Positions 8,200-58,240 of a stretch of DNA of 64,000 nucleotides are shown one piece after another (the stretch's first letter is position 1; every line of letters begins with the position of its first letter). The position numbers and the translations under genes were made by a program. Origin of the DNA: Pantoea eucalypti (lineage in GTDB: Bacteria > Pseudomonadota > Gammaproteobacteria > Enterobacterales > Enterobacteriaceae); assembly GCF_009646115.1 (NCBI RefSeq), contig NZ_CP045721.1, positions 1 through 64,000 of the forward strand. The letters run 5' to 3'. The notes under the pieces are model-generated. The model ran no database searches, was not told where the DNA came from, and saw only the letters and a program-made list of their open reading frames with translations.

Positions 8200-9408
8200 G
8201 TGCACGCCAATACCGCATTCAGTGAAACCACAACACAACGAGGCCTGCCTCTGGCTTCCCTGCTGGCATTTGCCATGACTGGCTTTATCGCCATTCTGAC
8301 CGAGACCCTTCCGGCGGGTCTGCTTCCGGAGATCGGAAAAGGTCTGGGTGTTTCTCAGGTAATGGCAGGCCAGCTGGTCAGTATCTATGCGCTGGGATCG
8401 CTGCTGGCGGCGATTCCTTTAACGGTTCTGACCAGTGGATGGCGACGTAAAAAAGTGCTGCTGCTTGCCGTCGGGACTTTCCTGATTTTCAACACCGTTA
8501 CCACCCTTTCATCCAGCTACTGGCTGACGATGGGGGCTCGCTTCATGTCCGGTGTGGCTGCCGGACTTGCATGGGGAGTCCTGGCGGGCTATGCGCGCCG
8601 CCTCGTTCCTGCTGAATTACAGGGCCGCGCGCTGGCTATTGCGATGGTTGGAATACCGGTTGCCCTGTCGCTGGGAACCCCGGCAGGCGCATGGCTGGGC
8701 AGTATGATGGGATGGAGAGTCCCCTTTGGGATCATGGCAGCACTGGCCATTATTCTCTTTATCTGGACATGGGTGGCGGTTCCTGACCTGCCGGGCCAGC
8801 AGGCTGACCGTCGACTGCCGGTATGGCAGGTTTTCCGTATGCCCGGCGTCAGGCCCGTTCTGGCGGTTATCTTTCTGTGGATGACGGCTCACAACATTCT
8901 TTATACGTTCATCGGACCATTCCTGCAGTTGTCGGGACTGACCGGAAACGTCGGACTTATCCTGCTGATTTTTGGCATCGCGGCATTGGTCGGCATCTGG
9001 ATCACCGGAATGTTGGTAGATCGTCATTTGCGACATCTGGTTCTGCTCAGCCTTGCAGCACTGGCGGCGGTTTCTGTGGTGCTGGTCGCAGGCATGCGGG
9101 AACAGATTGTGGTCTATGTGGCTGTCATCGTATGGGGTTGGTCGTTTGGTGGTGCATCAACCCAGATGCAAACGGCCGCCGCTGATTCGGCTGGCAATCA
9201 TGTCGACGTTGTTCAGGCGATGGTGACAACCGCATGGAATCTGGCTATCGCCAGCGGCGGCGTTACTGGAGGACTGCTTCTCAATAATGCCGGTGCGGTC
9301 TCTTTCCCCTGGGCGCTACTCACCTTTATGGCGGTTGCGTTGATCATCGCCTGGCGGGCGAAAAAGCATGCTTTCAGGCCGGGTGCCAGAGGAGGCCCAG
9401 TGAAATAG
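8200..9408 (+). CDS. MFS exporter, DHA1 type (SotB/AraJ-like)
   Basis: 402 residues with about 12 membrane segments. The N-terminal part (ETLPAGLLPEIGKGLGVSQVMAG split over TM1-2) and the GARFMSGVAAGLAWGVLAGYA stretch in TM4 resemble sugar/arabinose and drug exporters of the DHA1 group. It should expel small solutes or drugs using the proton gradient. The GTG start at 8200 has AAAAGGA a few bases upstream. It is divergently paired with a TetR repressor, as inducible efflux pumps commonly are. Substrate unknown. Confidence 0.88.
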   Translation: MHANTAFSETTTQRGLPLASLLAFAMTGFIAILTETLPAGLLPEIGKGLGVSQVMAGQLVSIYALGSLLAAIPLTVLTSGWRRKKVLLLAVGTFLIFNTVTTLSSSYWLTMGARFMSGVAAGLAWGVLAGYARRLVPAELQGRALAIAMVGIPVALSLGTPAGAWLGSMMGWRVPFGIMAALAIILFIWTWVAVPDLPGQQADRRLPVWQVFRMPGVRPVLAVIFLWMTAHNILYTFIGPFLQLSGLTGNVGLILLIFGIAALVGIWITGMLVDRHLRHLVLLSLAALAAVSVVLVAGMREQIVVYVAVIVWGWSFGGASTQMQTAAADSAGNHVDVVQAMVTTAWNLAIASGGVTGGLLLNNAGAVSFPWALLTFMAVALIIAWRAKKHAFRPGARGGPVK

Positions 9409-51724: not shown

Positions 51725-52465
51725 TTATTTATCTGTGCCGAAACCCTGCTTCAGCAGTGCGGGCAGTACAGCCGGGAAATAGATGTTCTTGTAATAACCG
51801 CTGACGCTCTCGCTCCAGCTCTCACCGTCATCACGTCCGATGTTTTTCCAGTGCTGAACCATTTCTTCATTATAAGCCGCAATCTGCTGCTCCAGACCCT
51901 GAGTCTGGTAGGTCTCATCGTGGCGGAAAGTGGCCAGCGGCAGACGTGGTTTCTGGTGAGCGGGCTGGTCAACGTGACCGATTACCACGCCGGCAACCGG
52001 GAAGGTCATCGGTGGAAGATTGAGCAGTGAGATCATTGCCTGCGGATCGCGACGGATACCACCAATCGGCACAATGCCCAGACCTTCTGCACGTGCCGCG
52101 GCCATCACTGACCCCAGCGCAATGCCGATATCGGTTGAACCCGATACGATACTCTCAATACTCTGATGAGCGATCTGCTGCTGATCGACAGCGGCCATGC
52201 CGACCGCTGATTTATGCATATCCAGCACAAAGGTGATAAACACGGGTGCTTTGGCGATCCACGGCTGACCGCCCGCGATGGCAGCGATCTCGGCACGACG
52301 TCCGGCATCACGGGTAATGACAACAGAAACCTGCTGCGAGTTTACTGATGTTGGTGCGCGGTAAGCGGTACTAATTATACGATCCAGTACCGCTTCATCG
52401 ACAGGTTGCTCAGTGAAACTGCGTTCACTTTTATGACTTGTAAAAATATCAATCAGTTCGCTCAT
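51725..52465 (-). CDS. NfsA-like NADPH-dependent flavin nitroreductase
   Basis: 246 residues. HKSERSFTEQPVDEAVLDRI, RAPTSVNSQQVSVVI and GLGIVPIGGIRRDP are typical of the NfsA/FRP oxidoreductase family that binds FMN. It reduces nitro compounds, quinones or flavins with NADPH. ATG 52465 is fixed by GGAGGAA. A longer frame to 52507 is not needed. A TGTACAT-type palindrome lies about 100 bases upstream and may be a regulatory site. Confidence 0.9.
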   Translation of the reverse strand: MSELIDIFTSHKSERSFTEQPVDEAVLDRIISTAYRAPTSVNSQQVSVVITRDAGRRAEIAAIAGGQPWIAKAPVFITFVLDMHKSAVGMAAVDQQQIAHQSIESIVSGSTDIGIALGSVMAAARAEGLGIVPIGGIRRDPQAMISLLNLPPMTFPVAGVVIGHVDQPAHQKPRLPLATFRHDETYQTQGLEQQIAAYNEEMVQHWKNIGRDDGESWSESVSGYYKNIYFPAVLPALLKQGFGTDK

Positions 52466-52562
52466 GGTTCCTCCCATATAAAGCGCAACTATAACAGCAC
52501 AGCGCATACATGCTTGGTAATTCGAGGGTTTTTGGGCGGGCTTTTGTAACTGATTTTTATCA

Positions 52563-52580
52563 TGTACATGTCTATGTACA
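52563..52580. repeat. palindrome TGTACAT-N4-ATGTACA, copy 1
   Basis: Perfect 7+4+7 inverted repeat. The same element, with only the spacer differing, occurs at 60824-60841. It lies about 100 bases upstream of the nitroreductase gene and at the left edge of the accessory island. Confidence 0.7.
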
Positions 52581-52845
52581 CTTTTGAAATCTATGGCGAA
52601 GTCACCAGATTTAGATTGTAAACCTTACGTATCATTTGCCGTTTCAATCGTGGCAGTAACGTTTCCCGGCAAAATGATCCCCTTACGCCCCGGTCCGTCG
52701 ACTGTCTCATGATGCGCGATAATTGGACCAGTGAACCAGGCATGACAGAGGGCGAAAGCCACAAACAGATTGAGCCACCCTGTTTTGGCAGTAATAAACT
52801 ATTGCGTATCTCCATGCCACCACACGTGAAAATGCGAAATAATCA

Positions 52846-53100
52846 TCACACTACCGGCAGGTCCGAAACCCTTGTGATATATGCCGGTGAAAGCATATCC
52901 CGCTTCATTGACCAGGATTTCTGGATACCCTGCCCTGCAAAAAAAAGACTGGCCTTGCCGCTCTGGTTGAGCCCATCAATCACCCGCATCAGAGCTTCGC
53001 TATTCGCCTGCGGCTGATATTCGTCAAACAGACTTAGCTGAGCCACCCCCTGGCTGAAGAAGTCACCAAGCATCACGCCCGCTTTCATATGCCGGTGTCG
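52846..53100 (-). pseudogene. umuC 3' fragment (DNA polymerase V subunit)
   Basis: About 80 codons match the UmuC C-terminus: MKAGVMLGDFFSQGVAQLSLFDE, then GKASLFFAGQGIQKSWSMKRDMLSPAY. The catalytic and palm domains are absent. Homology begins inside the 3' end of the neighbouring LexA-controlled small gene, so the rest was lost by recombination at that point. Confidence 0.85.
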
Positions 53101-53260
53101 TGTGTGTCTCTATCCACTTATTCGCAGAGTTAAGTGTGTAATGCCAGTTCATCTGGCCAGGCTCTTTTACAAAGTCGAGTGTGCTGATGGTGAATCGGCC
53201 TTCAGCATCGCGCTTAATCGCCTGCCTGAAAGCCATCATGATTTCGTAGTCGCGTGGCAT
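53063..53260 (-). CDS. small LexA-regulated protein of unknown function
   Basis: 65 residues, MPRDYEIMMAFRQAIKRDAE at the start, with a soluble alpha/beta look. ATG 53260 follows AAGGGGGA. A near-perfect LexA box ends 22 bases upstream, so it is very probably induced by DNA damage. Its 3' end overlaps a umuC remnant by about 26-38 bases in another frame. I do not recognise the family with confidence. It may be a phage- or plasmid-borne SOS gene that took over a umuDC site. Confidence 0.72.
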   Translation of the reverse strand: MPRDYEIMMAFRQAIKRDAEGRFTISTLDFVKEPGQMNWHYTLNSANKWIETHTTPAYESGRDAW

Positions 53261-53281
53261 GATAATTCCCCCTTTGATTAA

Positions 53282-53301
53282 TACTGTATGGATAAACAGT
53301 A
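53282..53301 (-). promoter_or_regulatory. LexA (SOS) box
   Basis: TACTGTATGGATAAACAGTA has the required CTGT-N8-ACAG core and near-perfect outer bases. It lies directly upstream of the 65-residue gene. Confidence 0.88.
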
Positions 53302-54204
53302 ATTGCAGTTGGCAGGTTTGATCAAGGCGAAGCTTACAACAGATTTGTAAAGGGTCTGATGGCGCTGAATTTTTATCTGACGGTCGTTATGAGGCCATCC
53401 TAAAGGCATGATATCCGAAGCTGACTTTGCAACCTGAGTCAATCGAAATAAATTGTTGAACGTCTATTTCCTAATAATGGCGTTATGTGTATCCTCCGTG
53501 TTATCAGCCAGGGCTGATAGATGGTTTGCCCCAATTGAACAACTTTACGCCCGTGTAACGCGGGTTTTTTTATGCCTTCCGTTAAATTGCCGCTCCAATG
53601 ATAGCTTACCAACGCAAAACCCACCCCGCAGAATAAATAGATGGCTTGCAGGTTATTTATTCCGTCGCAAATTTTACTACTGCTTTAGTCTGCAAAGAGC
53701 GAGAAGCGGACAATTTACCTTACCCATAAATTTTTTCTCTGCGCATTTACAAAATCATTAGAGGTGATTCGGCGGGAGTAATCGTTTTGTATGGCCGCTT
53801 TTTGGAAAAGCCGTCATTTGCAGCGAATCCAAAAGTATTCATTCAGCCTGCTGTTGATCGGCTTTGGTATAATCGTTTCAATTAGCCATGTATGACATAA
53901 GTCTTTTGAAAGCGCATGATTGCAGTCTGTAAGAGCAACAAAACTTCACTTCGGAAACGCTCGCTTTTGATTTAGAGCGGACATTCATAGTTCCTGAAAG
54001 ATTCAGTTAATATGAACCGCATTTGATAATCTCCCGTCATCATGATTACAAAAAATATTGCGACACTTTCCAGAAAGACGGGGCCAGCCTGGAATTAAAT
54101 TTAATAAATAACCATAAAAATCAACGCTGTAAAAGCTTTTTCACTAAGCTTTCCAAAAAATACCGTTAACATTTTGTATGCATTTCTTTCAAAACGTCGC
54201 CATA
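53302..54204. other. about 0.9-kb AT-rich region without protein genes
   Basis: No frame with a ribosome site is convincing. It contains a rho-independent terminator at 53550-53571 that may end a small RNA, and then AT-rich sequence leading to the microcin locus promoter. Confidence 0.6.
53550..53571 (+). terminator. rho-independent terminator, possible small RNA end
   Basis: CCCG-TGTAACG-CGGG followed by seven T. A CAGCC-AGG-GGCTG-like hairpin lies about 45 bases upstream. No protein gene precedes it. Confidence 0.65.
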
Positions 54205-54233
54205 TTGTCAACTAATTACTCTTTGTGTGTAAT
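54205..54233 (+). promoter_or_regulatory. sigma-70 promoter of the microcin locus
   Basis: TTGTCA (54205-54210), a 17-base spacer and TGTAAT (54228-54233). It lies 41 bases before the immunity-candidate start. Confidence 0.55.
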
Positions 54234-54274
54234 CTTTTTGTTAATACTATTTACGCGAATATGAGGACTTGACT

Positions 54275-54466
54275 ATGAAATCAGTTATCCAAGAGAAGAT
54301 ACTTACTTTAATTTTTTGCGTTGCGATTACAGCTGTAATTGTTAAGTTCATTTCGAAAAGTGCTTTTTACGTTTCACATCCTTCTTTATCCATTTCATTA
54401 ATAGTTGCTGTAGCAGTAATTATCTCAAACGTGATAGTAACAAATTTAGTTTCAAAAAGAGGATAA
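54275..54466 (+). CDS. probable microcin immunity protein
   Basis: 63 residues, almost all in two membrane segments (ILTLIFCVAITAVIVKFI and SISLIVAVAVIISNVIVTNLV) with a short basic tail. GAGGA sits seven bases before ATG 54275. The gene is AT-rich compared with its surroundings, suggesting transfer. It is followed five bases later by a double-glycine peptide gene. Small two-helix membrane proteins in this position are typically the immunity genes of class II microcins. Function is inferred from context only. Confidence 0.7.
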   Translation: MKSVIQEKILTLIFCVAITAVIVKFISKSAFYVSHPSLSISLIVAVAVIISNVIVTNLVSKRG

Positions 54467-54471
54467 ATGAC

Positions 54472-54816
54472 ATGCTTAGAGAACTGACCGAAAATGAAAG
54501 TAATATCGTCTCTGGCGGTAATGCTAACTCAGGTTACGAAGGCTCAAACTGCACCAACGCCGCGATTGAAGGGGGTGTTAACGGTGCAACGGGTGGTGCT
54601 GTGGCCGGTGCTATCCGTGGCGGTGTCACGGGCCTCGCTGGCGGCCCTGGAGGGGTAGTAGCAGGCGCGGGTGCCGGGGCTGCTGAAGGGGCTGTTTATG
54701 GCGGAGTTCCAGGTGCTATTGGAGGGTATGTAGGTTGCCAGAATAGCGGCTATGCTAACAATGGTGGAAACAGTAGCAATCTCGGCGTAGATTCCAGCGA
54801 TAACAGCGTGAACTGA
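54472..54816 (+). CDS. class II microcin/bacteriocin precursor with double-glycine leader
   Basis: 114 residues. The first 16, MLRELTENESNIVSGG, are a textbook double-glycine leader for export by a peptidase-containing ABC transporter. The predicted mature peptide of 98 residues is dominated by Gly, Ala and Val in GxxxG-like repeats (GGAVAGAIRGGVTGLAGGPG), which fits membrane insertion. It has exactly two cysteines (precursor residues 27 and 89) that could form a disulfide. The C-terminal tail is Asn/Ser rich. GAGGAT precedes the ATG. No CvaA/CvaB-type exporter is in this window. I do not recognise a named microcin. Confidence 0.82.
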   Translation: MLRELTENESNIVSGGNANSGYEGSNCTNAAIEGGVNGATGGAVAGAIRGGVTGLAGGPGGVVAGAGAGAAEGAVYGGVPGAIGGYVGCQNSGYANNGGNSSNLGVDSSDNSVN

Positions 54817-54863
54817 CAGTGCCATTGGTAGCAGGTTACGAAAGACTGAACCCTAACAGTCTA

Positions 54864-55280
54864 CTATTGTATTTTCGATACTTCAGCTTTAGCCCATTTA
54901 ACCGCATCATCAGCAAAGTATTGATTACCAGTTAAATAATCAACTACAAGCCCTCCTGCAAGACTTGCAATACAGGATGCCGTCGCTAAGGCAGAGACCC
55001 ACTCAAGTTCATATCTGCCTGTTGATAAAACAATTGCTAAATCCGGAACGAAGGTAGCATTTAACTCATTAAGTTCACCATCATTATCCACTACATGTAC
55101 ATAATACTCGAAACCTGAAATTGAACCATTAACAGGGCAAGGTAAGAAGCCGCTGAACGTTAAAGGATCAAATTCATCATCCAGTACGCAGGGAAACCCT
55201 GCATGAATGATTGAATCCCTAAGAAGAGAAGTAGGAGGGAAGTTTTTTTTAGCTATGTAAATACCGATATCGCGTGACAA
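54864..55280 (-). CDS. hypothetical protein, possible immunity protein
   Basis: 138 residues beginning SRDIGIYIAKKNFPPTSLLRD, followed by PLTFSGFLPCPVNGSISGFEYYV and a hydrophobic stretch (WVSALATASCIASLAGGLVVDY). It resembles an uncharacterised family often seen beside toxin or phage genes. The TTG start at 55280 is chosen for AAGGAG six bases upstream. It lies 29 bases after the truncated tape-measure gene, in the same direction, so it may be an immunity partner of a lost toxin end. Confidence 0.65.
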   Translation of the reverse strand: MSRDIGIYIAKKNFPPTSLLRDSIIHAGFPCVLDDEFDPLTFSGFLPCPVNGSISGFEYYVHVVDNDGELNELNATFVPDLAIVLSTGRYELEWVSALATASCIASLAGGLVVDYLTGNQYFADDAVKWAKAEVSKIQ

Positions 55281-55309
55281 GTCTTACTCCTTCTTAGTCA
55301 AGTTCTGGC

Positions 55310-56971
55310 CTATAACAATACATGGAAAACCAGATAATCAGCATCGTTATCCAGCCCCTGTGTGAAGGTGTCCAGCATGCCGCCATCCCTGCCCATCACC
55401 AGCTGCAGGTTCTCCCACTTTTTCTGAAAGTCGATTTTCTTACCGTTATAGGTGCCGCCGACCACACCATAAGCGTCATTCAGTCCCCGTACGATGCCAT
55501 AGGCGTCGGTACGGTGATGGATAGTCTCAAGCTGTTTGTCAATAAGATTAAACATCTTGCCGCCAGTCCGCCCAAATATCAGGGCATTCTCACGCTGCTT
55601 CTGTTCTTCTGTGCAATGATTACGGCGATAGATGGGCAGGATGACGTTTTCATAGTATTCAACCGGCGACTGGCTGAAGAGCTGAGCATTGATAAGCGGG
55701 TTGCCACGGAAGCGCTTTATGCCTTCCAGGCCGTTGAGCTCAATTTTGCTGGCATCCCATATACCCATTTTCATGAGGTCATGCGTGACCTGATTAGGTA
55801 ATTTGATAATGCCGTTTAACCGGTTGTAAGCGGTCATCAGCGCATCACCCGCTGAGCTGCCCTTAAGCTCGCCGATAATCGGCTCAAGCTCGGCAAACAA
55901 CGCTTTATTGCTCAGACCGAACGCAGCAGTGCCGGCTTTGGCCATAAACTGACGGTACTGGGTGAAATCGACATTGCCCCCGGAGGACTGGATTGCGCGG
56001 AAGGCAGCGTCAATGAGTCGGTTAATCCGCTCAGGGCTTTTCAGGCCGCCCGCGGTCTCAGTAAAGCGCAGCATATCCATCTGCTTCGCAACCGTGGCTT
56101 CGCGCTGGTGCTCATCCAGAACGCGTGAGGCGAATGTGATACGCGCCAGCACGGGGGCAGCCAGTTTCGCCGCGCGCAGCTGCTCATCCACAGACTTCAT
56201 GCCGGATTCGCTGAATACGCCCTGCGCCTCCACCAGATACTTCAGCATGTCAGTAGCCGATGAGCCACGGACCCACGTGGTTTCGGCAAAATGCATTGCT
56301 TCCTCTGTGGTCGCCTGACTCATGCCGAACTGTCTGAACTTCTCAGTCATGGTCTGGTACCGGGCAGCCTCGTCAACAAAACCCTTCAGCATGCTGAAGC
56401 CCAGATAGCCGGTGGCCAGACTGGTCATACCGGCTGAATATGAGCCTCCACCTGGTGGCCGGCCATTACCACCGCCGTGGCCAGAGCCACCCCATCCACC
56501 AGGAGGGACGCCGTTATTCCAGCCATGCCACCAGCGACTGTTTCCTGCAGGAGGAGGCAGCGCAGGTCCTCCGCCATGGTTCCCATATCCACTGCTGCCC
56601 CCTGCAGCCGCGGCACCAGCAGCAGCCCGAACGGGCAACGTTATGGCTGCACCGTAGCTGCCCGCCAGCAGTGGCACATTACGGGAGGCCCGGTTGATGC
56701 GCTGTGTCTGGTAGGCAATCTCGCGGATGGCACCGGCATACTCACGCGCGCCGCGTGACGCACCAGAGAACATATTATTGAGGGAGCGATTGAGTGCCCG
56801 CAGCGCAGATGTCGCCTCGCGTGCCGCACTGGTCAGTGCTTTAATGTTCCTGGTGATGGTGAGGAACTTCTTGTTCAGTTCAATCGCATCACGGCTCACC
56901 TGCAGCAGGTTGCGCGTAATCTGGTCATCCAGCGCCAGCCGCACGGCTACACGGTAAGCCTTAACATCCAT
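55310..56971 (-). CDS. phage tail tape-measure-like protein, C-terminally truncated
   Basis: 553 residues. A helical N-terminus (ALDDQITRNLLQVSRDAIEL) is followed by a Gly/Pro/Trp/His-rich linker near residues 120-175, a hydrophobic patch, and then a phage-tail-type domain (RYQTMTEKFRQFGMSQATTEEA to EKWENLQLVMGRDGG). Tape-measure relatives continue well beyond this point, but here the protein ends in an unrelated short tail (DADYLVFHVLL), indicating truncation. ATG 56971 follows GAGG. No other tail genes remain, so it is a prophage remnant. Confidence 0.75.
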   Translation of the reverse strand: MDVKAYRVAVRLALDDQITRNLLQVSRDAIELNKKFLTITRNIKALTSAAREATSALRALNRSLNNMFSGASRGAREYAGAIREIAYQTQRINRASRNVPLLAGSYGAAITLPVRAAAGAAAAGGSSGYGNHGGGPALPPPAGNSRWWHGWNNGVPPGGWGGSGHGGGNGRPPGGGSYSAGMTSLATGYLGFSMLKGFVDEAARYQTMTEKFRQFGMSQATTEEAMHFAETTWVRGSSATDMLKYLVEAQGVFSESGMKSVDEQLRAAKLAAPVLARITFASRVLDEHQREATVAKQMDMLRFTETAGGLKSPERINRLIDAAFRAIQSSGGNVDFTQYRQFMAKAGTAAFGLSNKALFAELEPIIGELKGSSAGDALMTAYNRLNGIIKLPNQVTHDLMKMGIWDASKIELNGLEGIKRFRGNPLINAQLFSQSPVEYYENVILPIYRRNHCTEEQKQRENALIFGRTGGKMFNLIDKQLETIHHRTDAYGIVRGLNDAYGVVGGTYNGKKIDFQKKWENLQLVMGRDGGMLDTFTQGLDNDADYLVFHVLL

Positions 56972-57020
56972 AGGAACCTCAATTTACGGGCATAAAAAAC
57001 CTGCCGGAGCGGGTCGGGTT

Positions 57021-57329
57021 TTAAGAAAATAACATCAAAATTCGGTGCGACAGGGACTCTATAAGAGCCTCATACCACTCCTTCACTGTTGGATCGAATT
57101 GCAAAAACCATAGACTGAAGTAAACCCCTCCAACACCAGCGAGCATATGCAAGCTAAGATTGAACCAGTATGCGTGAGGCCGGTCAGCCCTCTTGATAAG
57201 CTCGCATCTGGACGTGCCTTTGAAAGTCTTGGTGTAGACACCAGTTCGGTAATAACTGATTGCTTGCATAACCATTACAAGCCCAGTGACAAAAATTGCA
57301 ATTACAGTGAACCAATAGCCGTAATCCAT
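57021..57329 (-). CDS. small membrane protein of unknown function
   Basis: 102 residues with a membrane segment at the N-terminus (WFTVIAIFVTGLVMVMQAI) and another near residue 60-80 (HMLAGVGGVYFSLWFLQF). The middle is basic (KTFKGTSRCELIKRADRPH). AAGGA lies ten bases before the ATG. It belongs to the accessory island and precedes the tape-measure gene on the same strand. Family not recognised. Confidence 0.6.
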   Translation of the reverse strand: MDYGYWFTVIAIFVTGLVMVMQAISYYRTGVYTKTFKGTSRCELIKRADRPHAYWFNLSLHMLAGVGGVYFSLWFLQFDPTVKEWYEALIESLSHRILMLFS

Positions 57330-57595
57330 GCCAAATAATTCCTTTTATAACTAAGTCTTTAATTGAACCAGCCAGCTATCTGCGTTTAATTATCATACGC
57401 ATTTTTCGGCTCTGCATTTCCGTTTTATCTGCCAGAACCAGACACTTTACACCATCGATTCCGGCTCATCATTTGAGCATTCACAAATTCCAGTCACTGC
57501 GAAAAGACCTGTTTTTTTATCAGGATTCCTATTCCAAAACTTAAGCGTATATTGCCAATGGGGTCTTCCCATATGGCAAGGTTTAAAAATCATAA

Positions 57596-57754
57596 ATGAA
57601 AAAAACAATCGTGGCTCTAATCACTCTGGCTCTCCTGGCACCATCTGTCAGCTTTGCACGCGGTGGTCATTACGCTGGTGGGCATGGCTCTTCTCACAAG
57701 TATGGTACGTATAAAAACGCTCGTACGGGCAATCATTATGAGAAGCGACACTGA
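57596..57754 (+). CDS. small secreted Gly/His-rich protein
   Basis: 52 residues. A signal peptide (MKKTIVALITLALLAPSVSF) is followed by a short mature part rich in Gly, His, Lys and Tyr (GGHYAGGHGSSHKYG, ending NHYEKRH). Proteins of this look occur in enterobacterial prophage regions. The ribosome site is weak. A strong terminator lies 24 bases after the stop, which supports a real transcript. Metal binding by the histidines is possible but unproven. Confidence 0.7.
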   Translation: MKKTIVALITLALLAPSVSFARGGHYAGGHGSSHKYGTYKNARTGNHYEKRH

Positions 57755-57777
57755 TTAATAGTATGGAATCCGTACTC

Positions 57778-57802
57778 AAAGCCCACTCCGCTGGGCTTTT
57801 TT
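57778..57802 (+). terminator. rho-independent terminator
   Basis: Stem AAAGCCCA with TGGGCTTT and six T, right after the Gly/His-rich peptide gene. Confidence 0.88.
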
Positions 57803-58240
57803 GATTATGCTGAAAGAGTGAATATGCAAAAGAAAAGTTAAAGTTTGCAGCCAGTGTGCCGATAATCAATAACATGCCTGAGTGACTCTTGTGAATGATG
57901 ATCATGTCAGTTGATACTATTTACCGGCACTTTTAAAAAGCCTGGGCTGAAACGCCACATTGAACACTTAGTGATGCTCAACTCCGTTTAATAGCTGAAA
58001 ACTGCCGCCGGGACGAAATAGCTGCAATTCACTTTGTCATAAAACTGTGCAATGCCGATCTTGCTACATGCCCTGACTAGGATGTTGAAAAGCAATACCT
58101 GCTTCACAAAAACATTCACACATTATAGCGCCTGCTTGCTCAGATTGATTTGCTGCGCAAGCAATAAGCGGTGTTCATTCCCAGTGAATGATTAGGCCGG
58201 CAGTCGATACCATAAGTATGTAACTCAAGGAGAACGCTCA
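57803..58240. other. 438-base region without a supported gene
   Basis: No frame with a ribosome site on either strand. The AAGGAG at its right end belongs to the next gene. Confidence 0.55.

What the first reader, a model, noticed from the sequence alone, without database searches (positions are those of the whole stretch)
54205..54816. Uncharacterised two-gene microcin locus (immunity candidate plus double-glycine precursor)
The leader MLRELTENESNIVSGG is seen directly and fits the class II microcin leader rule. The 98-residue mature part is Gly/Ala rich with two cysteines far apart, and the 63-residue gene just upstream is a two-helix membrane protein. AT-rich composition of the immunity gene suggests transfer. 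No exporter is nearby, so it would have to borrow a CvaAB-type system elsewhere. I do not recognise it as a named microcin.
Basis: partly seen in the sequence, partly recalled or inferred. Interest (0 to 1): 0.78.

Follow-up and report, generated by a model that had tools for sequence, protein, structure and literature searches.

The report
Broken-down Pantoea microcin with its immunity gene
This spot on a Pantoea megaplasmid holds the leftovers of a bacteria-killing peptide system: the protective gene is still whole, but the peptide gene stops short and its export machinery is gone, so it most likely no longer works as a weapon.

Summary
Both are homologs of a class IIa (microcin PDI-like) microcin pair. 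In Pantoea agglomerans and Erwinia oleae the pair heads an operon with an HlyD-type protein, a C39 peptidase ABC exporter and a ClpP-like protein. The window copy is a remnant. Its precursor ends five residues before the shared C-terminus. Homology to the complete operon stops at 54830. No exporter genes lie at the locus, and no C39 domain was found in the 4.8-Mb genome, whereas 15 of 16 precursor-bearing genomes have one. Sister plasmids carry the same stop; one has lesions in both genes. In two other lineages the immunity ORF is intact while the precursor is destroyed. Best reading: a dismantled microcin with a possibly still protective orphan immunity gene. Borrowing an exporter in trans looks feasible for a Rosenbergiella relative, but not for this genome. 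Microcins and orphan microcin immunity genes are known kinds, and Pantoea/Erwinia microcins are in print. The ClpP-like partner in intact relatives is the more interesting lead.

The parts
54166..54274 (+). Upstream stretch shared with the complete operons (GAGGA at 54263-54267)
   Evidence: blastn homology to L002, L003, L004, L010 begins at 54165/54166; promoter scan 3 found, shuffles mean 2.4
54275..54466 (+). 63-aa immunity-protein candidate, intact ORF, two hydrophobic segments
   Evidence: no Pfam or NCBIfam family above its curated cut-off
54472..54816 (+). 114-aa class IIa (MccPDI-like) microcin precursor, ending five residues before the relatives' C-terminus
   Evidence: (1 TGA inside the 119-position match)
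54472..54519 (+). Double-glycine leader (16 residues), followed by the NANSxYEG segment
   Evidence: alignments; 49 of 76 collected proteins carry a NANS-type segment after the leader
54817..54830 (+). Residual homology beyond the early stop; homology to the operon ends here, before any exporter gene
   Evidence: matches to L002, L003, L004, L010 end at 54830
54830..55347 (.). Block shared with P. ananatis plasmids (87-92% DNA), abutting the microcin remnant; carries a 138-aa ORF of unknown function at 54864-55280 (-)
   Evidence: extent, searched on its own; no Pfam or PHROG family and one sub-threshold NCBIfam match
55310..56971 (-). 553-aa ORF whose homologs outside the sister plasmids match at most residues 1-542; its end is replaced at the same block
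   Evidence: H114-H118

Best explanation
The locus is a degraded remnant of a complete MccPDI-like class IIa microcin operon carried on a Pantoea ~0.5-Mb plasmid. In intact relatives the precursor would be cut after its double glycine and exported by a C39 peptidase ABC transporter plus an HlyD-type adaptor (inferred from gene content and the class II microcin pathway, not assayed), and the 63-aa membrane protein would protect the producer (inferred). In this lineage another plasmid's DNA now lies directly after the precursor gene, the exporter genes are absent, and the precursor has an early stop. The peptide is therefore most likely not secreted. The 63-aa ORF is still open and, if made, could still protect the cell from the microcin of intact neighbours as an orphan immunity gene; the alternative is that it is simply decaying too.
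For: Operons with the same pair and every part in one piece: L002, L003, L004 and L028. Operon homology ends at 54830, where DNA shared with P. ananatis plasmids begins. The precursor lacks the last five residues present in all 6 longer relatives of the alignment; 36 of 49 NANS-type proteins have a Cys within the last five residues. Own genome: 0 C39 matches; a whole-exporter query gave 119 ABC-type matches, none starting before query residue 107; the one ABC plus HlyD-type neighbour pair has no C39 domain and no Cys in its first 160 residues. Of 16 genomes with a precursor match, 15 have a C39 match and only G000 has none; all 7 genomes of the named relatives searched also have one (2 of the 7 look identical to genomes already counted, and L036 was not held). 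The early-stop sequence is shared by MT58, FBS135 and D25 and P0001; D25 has lesions in both genes; P0004 is a frameshifted version. Window vs FBS135: 5 non-synonymous and 2 synonymous precursor differences, no sign of constraint, while divergence from intact relatives was constrained (dN/dS 0.14-0.16).
Against: For MccPDI the two C-terminal cysteines are individually dispensable (PMC5311971, passages), so losing the terminal Cys need not by itself abolish activity. The frame is otherwise open. A relative (L032) has a full-length pair without an adjacent exporter, so absence next door is not proof of loss. A C39 exporter on a plasmid missing from the assembly, or in a co-resident strain, cannot be excluded. 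13 of 49 NANS-type proteins also lack the terminal Cys, some of them not obviously broken. Counts on 63-114 codons are small.
Confidence: 0.78

Rival explanations
1. The pair is a working microcin that uses an exporter supplied in trans.
For: Leader intact with double glycine; both ORFs open in the window, MT58 and FBS135; older divergence constrained; the Rosenbergiella relative has no exporter match in its locus but two C39 matches in its genome.
Against: No C39 match in the 4.8-Mb assembly rated 100% complete. Precursor shortened relative to all six longer relatives. D25, one of four close strains, has both genes broken. Only 5 of 1,562 Serratia assemblies with putative microcins lacked a PCAT (PMC13101503, passages).
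Confidence: 0.08
2. Orphan immunity kept by selection (a sharper form of the best explanation): the toxin side has been shed while the 63-aa protein is retained as resistance to the microcin of intact P. agglomerans-type neighbours.
For: The immunity ORF is open in three differently wrecked lineages: the window clade; G034, where precursor codon 20 is joined to HlyD codon 335; and L006/L007, where at most a trace of the first precursor codons remains. Against L002, amino-acid changes are fewer than neutral in L006 (11 of 21, binomial P 0.018) and L007 (13 of 23, P 0.036). Orphan microcin immunity genes are reported on E. coli plasmids (53 counted), and that paper argues that immunity gain explains many orphans (PMC12546727, passages).
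Against: Part of that constraint may predate toxin loss, and L006 and L007 are close relatives. In D25 the immunity ORF is itself broken. Window vs FBS135 immunity: 2 non-synonymous, 0 synonymous. G034 vs L002 is not significant (6.5 of 11, P 0.11, count rounded). Protection is untested.
Confidence: 0.4
3. The 114-aa form is a shortened but functional variant with a different uptake route, not a broken gene.
For: Early stop present in the window, MT58, FBS135 and P0001, and its sequence in D25; terminal cysteines of MccPDI are dispensable (PMC5311971, passages).
Against: Does not explain the missing exporter, the abutting foreign DNA or the further lesions in D25 and P0004. Of 8 full-length matches in 7 genomes only this one has a stop inside.
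Confidence: 0.07

Closest known systems
Microcin PDI (McpM) and other NANS-type class IIa microcins
   Same: Double-glycine leader directly followed by NANSNYEGG; Gly-rich core; in relatives a Cys near the C-terminus. P0052 matches 15 of the 16 McpM residues named in PMC5311971 (all but S33; passages) and is a hit of the family profile (E 8.6e-5). The verified McpM sequence itself was not fetched.
   Different: Different core; the window copy lacks the C-terminal five residues and has no export genes.
Hybrid 'Group 2' Pantoea/Erwinia microcin candidates (PMC13174018, two sections read, passages)
   Same: Pantoea/Erwinia class IIa candidates with a MccPDI-like C-terminal part and a Cys very near the end, most beside PCAT and MFP genes.
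   Different: Described with two cysteines (P. agglomerans relatives here have three) and a MccH47-like N-terminal part, which I did not test here. Their sequences are in figures or supplements that I could not read, so identity with this family is open.
Orphan bacteriocin immunity genes (PMC12546727, passages)
   Same: Immunity gene without a working cognate toxin on a plasmid; the paper also describes shared truncations of the toxin gene among related plasmids.
   Different: Here in Pantoea; protective activity untested.

Membership tests
Class II microcin (precursor) | 15-19 residue leader ending in a double glycine (or GA) | tested here: met
   16 residues ending GG; rule from PMC5311971 passages
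Class II microcin (precursor) | Homology to McpM-type class IIa microcins | tested here: met
   Family profile hits P0023, P0039, P0049, P0052; P0052 fits 15 of 16 published McpM residues; the verified sequence itself was not compared
Class II microcin (system) | C39 peptidase ABC exporter (PCAT) in the genome | tested here: not met
   0 matches in G000; present in intact relatives
Class II microcin (system) | HlyD-type membrane fusion protein of the microcin exporter | tested here: not met
   absent from the locus; four weak HlyD matches elsewhere, 22-30% identity
Class II microcin (system) | Adjacent small membrane immunity protein | tested here: inconclusive
   63 aa, two hydrophobic segments, 5 bp upstream, conserved beside the precursor; structure job unfinished; protection not tested
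Class IIa NANS-type (MccPDI-like) microcin | NANS segment after the double glycine | tested here: met
Class IIa NANS-type (MccPDI-like) microcin | Cys within the last five residues | tested here: not met
   window ends five residues early; 36 of 49 NANS-type proteins have it
Class II microcin (precursor) | Antibacterial activity of the secreted peptide | not testable with these tools
   needs an assay
Orphan bacteriocin immunity gene | Intact immunity ORF without a functional cognate toxin, protective when expressed | tested here: inconclusive
   ORF intact and toxin side broken; protection untested

The most novel reading that the evidence does not exclude
The intact relatives define an uncharacterised microcin subtype in which a secreted ClpP-like peptidase (CLP_protease domain plus an N-terminal signal-like segment), encoded just after the C39 exporter, takes part in maturation of the peptide or gives a second, proteolytic layer of self-protection. 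The window shows what is left when a lineage disarms but keeps the dedicated 63-aa resistance gene.
Probability: 0.25. Interest if true: 0.55.

Novelty: new member of a known kind. Interest (0 to 1): 0.3.

Why it matters
It turns a 'new microcin' call into a concrete case of weapon loss with the immunity gene left behind, in plant-associated Pantoea. Three differently wrecked lineages of one operon, each with an open immunity ORF in at least one genome (broken in strain D25), make the 'toxin loss versus immunity gain' question (posed for E. coli in PMC12546727) testable in one small family. It also shows that leader-motif mining without checking for the exporter and the C-terminus overcounts producers.

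Tried and rejected
Considered and rejected: chance ORFs (homologs in the same arrangement); a housekeeping small protein (sparse: immunity profile in 4 of 61 genus, 2 of 295 family and 1 of 394 order genomes, G000 counted in each); the chromosomal 714-aa ABC plus HlyD-type pair as exporter (no C39 domain, no Cys in the first 160 residues).

Led nowhere: Pfam and NCBIfam on the pair (nothing above curated cut-offs); the P. vagans C9-1 flank as an empty site (different surroundings); promoter scan (3 found against a shuffle mean of 2.4); ClpP-like protein in the own genome (no match, and without a positive control that answer shows little); AlphaFold of the 63-aa protein (accepted; not finished when asked), so the two-segment topology rests on hydropathy alone. 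Literature: no paper holds both 'class II microcin' and 'Clp protease' (one search of this open-licence library). PMC11494933 does not mention Pantoea, Rahnella, Erwinia, Clp or orphan in its main text.

Full report
OBSERVATION. The window encodes, on the + strand, a 63-aa ORF (54275-54466) and, 5 bp later, a 114-aa ORF (54472-54816) starting MLRELTENESNIVSGG. The small ORF is AT-rich (GC 0.297; precursor 0.559; window 0.514) and has two hydrophobic segments by hydropathy. Neither has a Pfam or NCBIfam match above a curated cut-off.

WHERE IT IS. The window lies on a 529-kb contig (G000:C2) of a 4.80-Mb genome in 4 contigs, rated 100% complete. The region 52000-58000 is 99.97% identical to the 522-kb plasmid of Pantoea sp. 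MT58, and the segment 53800-55400 is 99.1% identical to plasmids of P. jilinensis D25 and P. vagans FBS135.

WHAT IT COMES FROM. P. agglomerans plasmids L002, L003 and L004 carry the same pair followed by an HlyD-family protein, a peptidase-domain (C39) ABC transporter and a protein annotated as a ClpP-type peptidase, with a methyltransferase gene upstream (domains of L002). Erwinia oleae (L028) has the same six genes. Rahnella aceris (L005) has the pair with a divergently oriented exporter and ClpP-like gene and no methyltransferase match. Erwinia sp. ErVv1 (L029) has the pair followed by HlyD fragments, then a second precursor with HlyD, exporter and ClpP-like gene, but that exporter's C39 match lies in an open frame of only 305 aa. 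Rosenbergiella collisarenosi (L032) has the pair with no exporter match in the 16-kb locus, yet two C39 matches in its genome: borrowing in trans is possible there. For L031 and L033 the fetched DNA shows only a precursor match. The intact precursors of the close relatives are 116-119 aa and end in GQCHW; in wider relatives the cores vary, but the leader, the NANSxYEGG segment and a C-terminal Cys mostly recur. A profile search with 12 members listed 75 proteins at E <= 0.1 (the 8000 best candidates were scored). Of 76 collected proteins 49 carry a NANS-type segment, and 36 of those have a Cys within the last five residues; the 13 without include the window's own kind (P0001, P0004), several that look frameshifted or fragmentary, and some that do not (P0063, P0065). 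P0052 matches 15 of 16 McpM residues named in PMC5311971 (passages; all but S33). The family is therefore MccPDI-like, though the verified McpM sequence itself was not compared.

WHAT IS BROKEN. (a) The window precursor ends five residues before the shared C-terminus; of 8 full-length matches in 7 genomes it is the only one with a stop inside. (b) Homology to the complete operon spans 54166-54830 and stops there. (c) At 54830 a block of about 518 bp begins that is 87-92% identical to P. ananatis plasmids. On its other side a 553-aa ORF is cut: outside the three sister plasmids, the listed homologs match at most residues 1-542 (15 of 21 records listed). (d) No C39 domain was found in the assembly. 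The search is able to find them: 34 of 61 genus genomes and 8 of 14 control genomes ring. A whole-exporter query gives 119 ABC-type matches in G000, none starting before residue 107 of the query. Across the 16 genomes with any precursor match (7 of 61 and 10 of 295, G000 in both), 15 have a C39 match and only G000 has none; several of these precursor matches are distant microcins (E ~1e-4), and one C39 match is partial (G498). All 7 genomes of named relatives that could be searched also have one, two of which look identical to genomes already counted (G717 to G047, G720 to G600). The chromosomal ABC plus HlyD-type pair at G000:C1 ~1.36 Mb has no C39 domain and no cysteine in its first 160 residues. 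The published Serratia survey found a PCAT in all but 5 of 1,562 microcin-bearing assemblies (PMC13101503, passages).

DECAY IN SISTERS. The sequence of the early stop is shared by MT58, FBS135 and D25 and the stop by P0001. D25 also has a frame-disrupting change in the precursor upstream of that stop, and a stop plus a deletion near the start of the immunity ORF; its record may contain sequencing errors. P0004 continues in the other frame after residue 36. Pairwise counts: window against intact relatives, precursor dN/dS 0.14-0.16; among intact relatives 0.00-0.11 (one pair undefined); window against FBS135, 5 non-synonymous and 2 synonymous differences, no sign of constraint (binomial P 0.58).

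IMMUNITY OUTLIVING THE TOXIN. In G034 the immunity ORF and the methyltransferase are intact while precursor codon 20 is joined to HlyD codon 335. G004, like G000, has no C39 match; G034 has one elsewhere. Against L002, amino-acid changes are fewer than neutral for L006 (11 of 21, P 0.018) and L007 (13 of 23, P 0.036), not for G034 (6.5 of 11, P 0.11). L006 and L007 are close relatives and not independent, and part of the constraint may predate toxin loss. D25 speaks against retention. I rate retention by selection at about 0.4.

MECHANISM. Shown: gene content, order, truncation, absence of a detectable C39 exporter. From established knowledge (class II microcin pathway as described in PMC9746304, passages): a PCAT is needed to cleave the leader and export the peptide. 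Inferred: the window peptide is not secreted; the 63-aa protein may still protect.

NOVELTY. Class II microcins in Pantoea and Erwinia are in print: 159 filtered candidates (text) or 191 unique candidates (legend) across three genera, 23 tested, and 'Group 2' hybrids with MccPDI-like C-termini (PMC13174018, sections read). Whether this family is among them I could not check, because the sequences are in figures or supplements. Orphan microcin immunity genes are also in print (PMC12546727, passages). The window's locus is therefore a degraded member of a known kind. A ClpP-like gene next to the exporter (matched in L002, L004, L005, L023/L027, L028, L029, L030, L035 and annotated in L003; not matched in L034, L036, L025) has no described role that I found.

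Noticed in passing
L002 14177-14854; L005 9971-10672 (-); L029 14172-14843; L030 2998-3630 (-); L035 7038-7694: ClpP-like protein (PF00574 in L002) with an N-terminal signal-like stretch (by eye), encoded beside the microcin C39 exporter in relatives; role unknown.
   Followed up: partly
L034 2344-2982 and 8435-9064, both - strand (Rahnella rivi): Putative membrane proteases beside two other microcin-like genes in place of the 63-aa protein: 8435-9064 matched PF02517 (Rce1-like); 2344-2982 judged similar by eye. Possible proteolytic immunity.
   Followed up: partly
L032 7805-8351 (Rosenbergiella collisarenosi): Full-length precursor and immunity pair with no exporter match in the 16-kb locus, in a genome with two C39 matches elsewhere: a candidate for export in trans.
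   Followed up: partly
window 54864-55280 (-): 138-aa protein of unknown function shared with P. ananatis plasmids, in a block that abuts two cut loci; in L008 it lies near two genes annotated as lipid II-degrading bacteriocins.
   Followed up: partly
window 55310-56971 (-): 553-aa ORF truncated at about residue 541 relative to homologs in other Pantoea plasmids; looks like a phage tail-type protein by eye, no PHROG match.
   Followed up: partly
window 52846-53088 (-): 80-aa ORF with a DUF4113 domain (recalled as the C-terminal piece of UmuC), apparently a gene fragment; DNA similar to 52883-53088 lies within umuC of L002.
   Followed up: no
L023 9329-11502 and 6449-7116 (same region as Pantoea sp. 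Mb-10 L027): Exporter and methyltransferase of an otherwise complete operon each match in two pieces; real decay or assembly error.
   Followed up: no
L029 8001-8737 (Erwinia sp. ErVv1): First precursor followed only by HlyD fragments, then a second precursor with a full HlyD match: looks like another partly wrecked copy of the operon.
   Followed up: no
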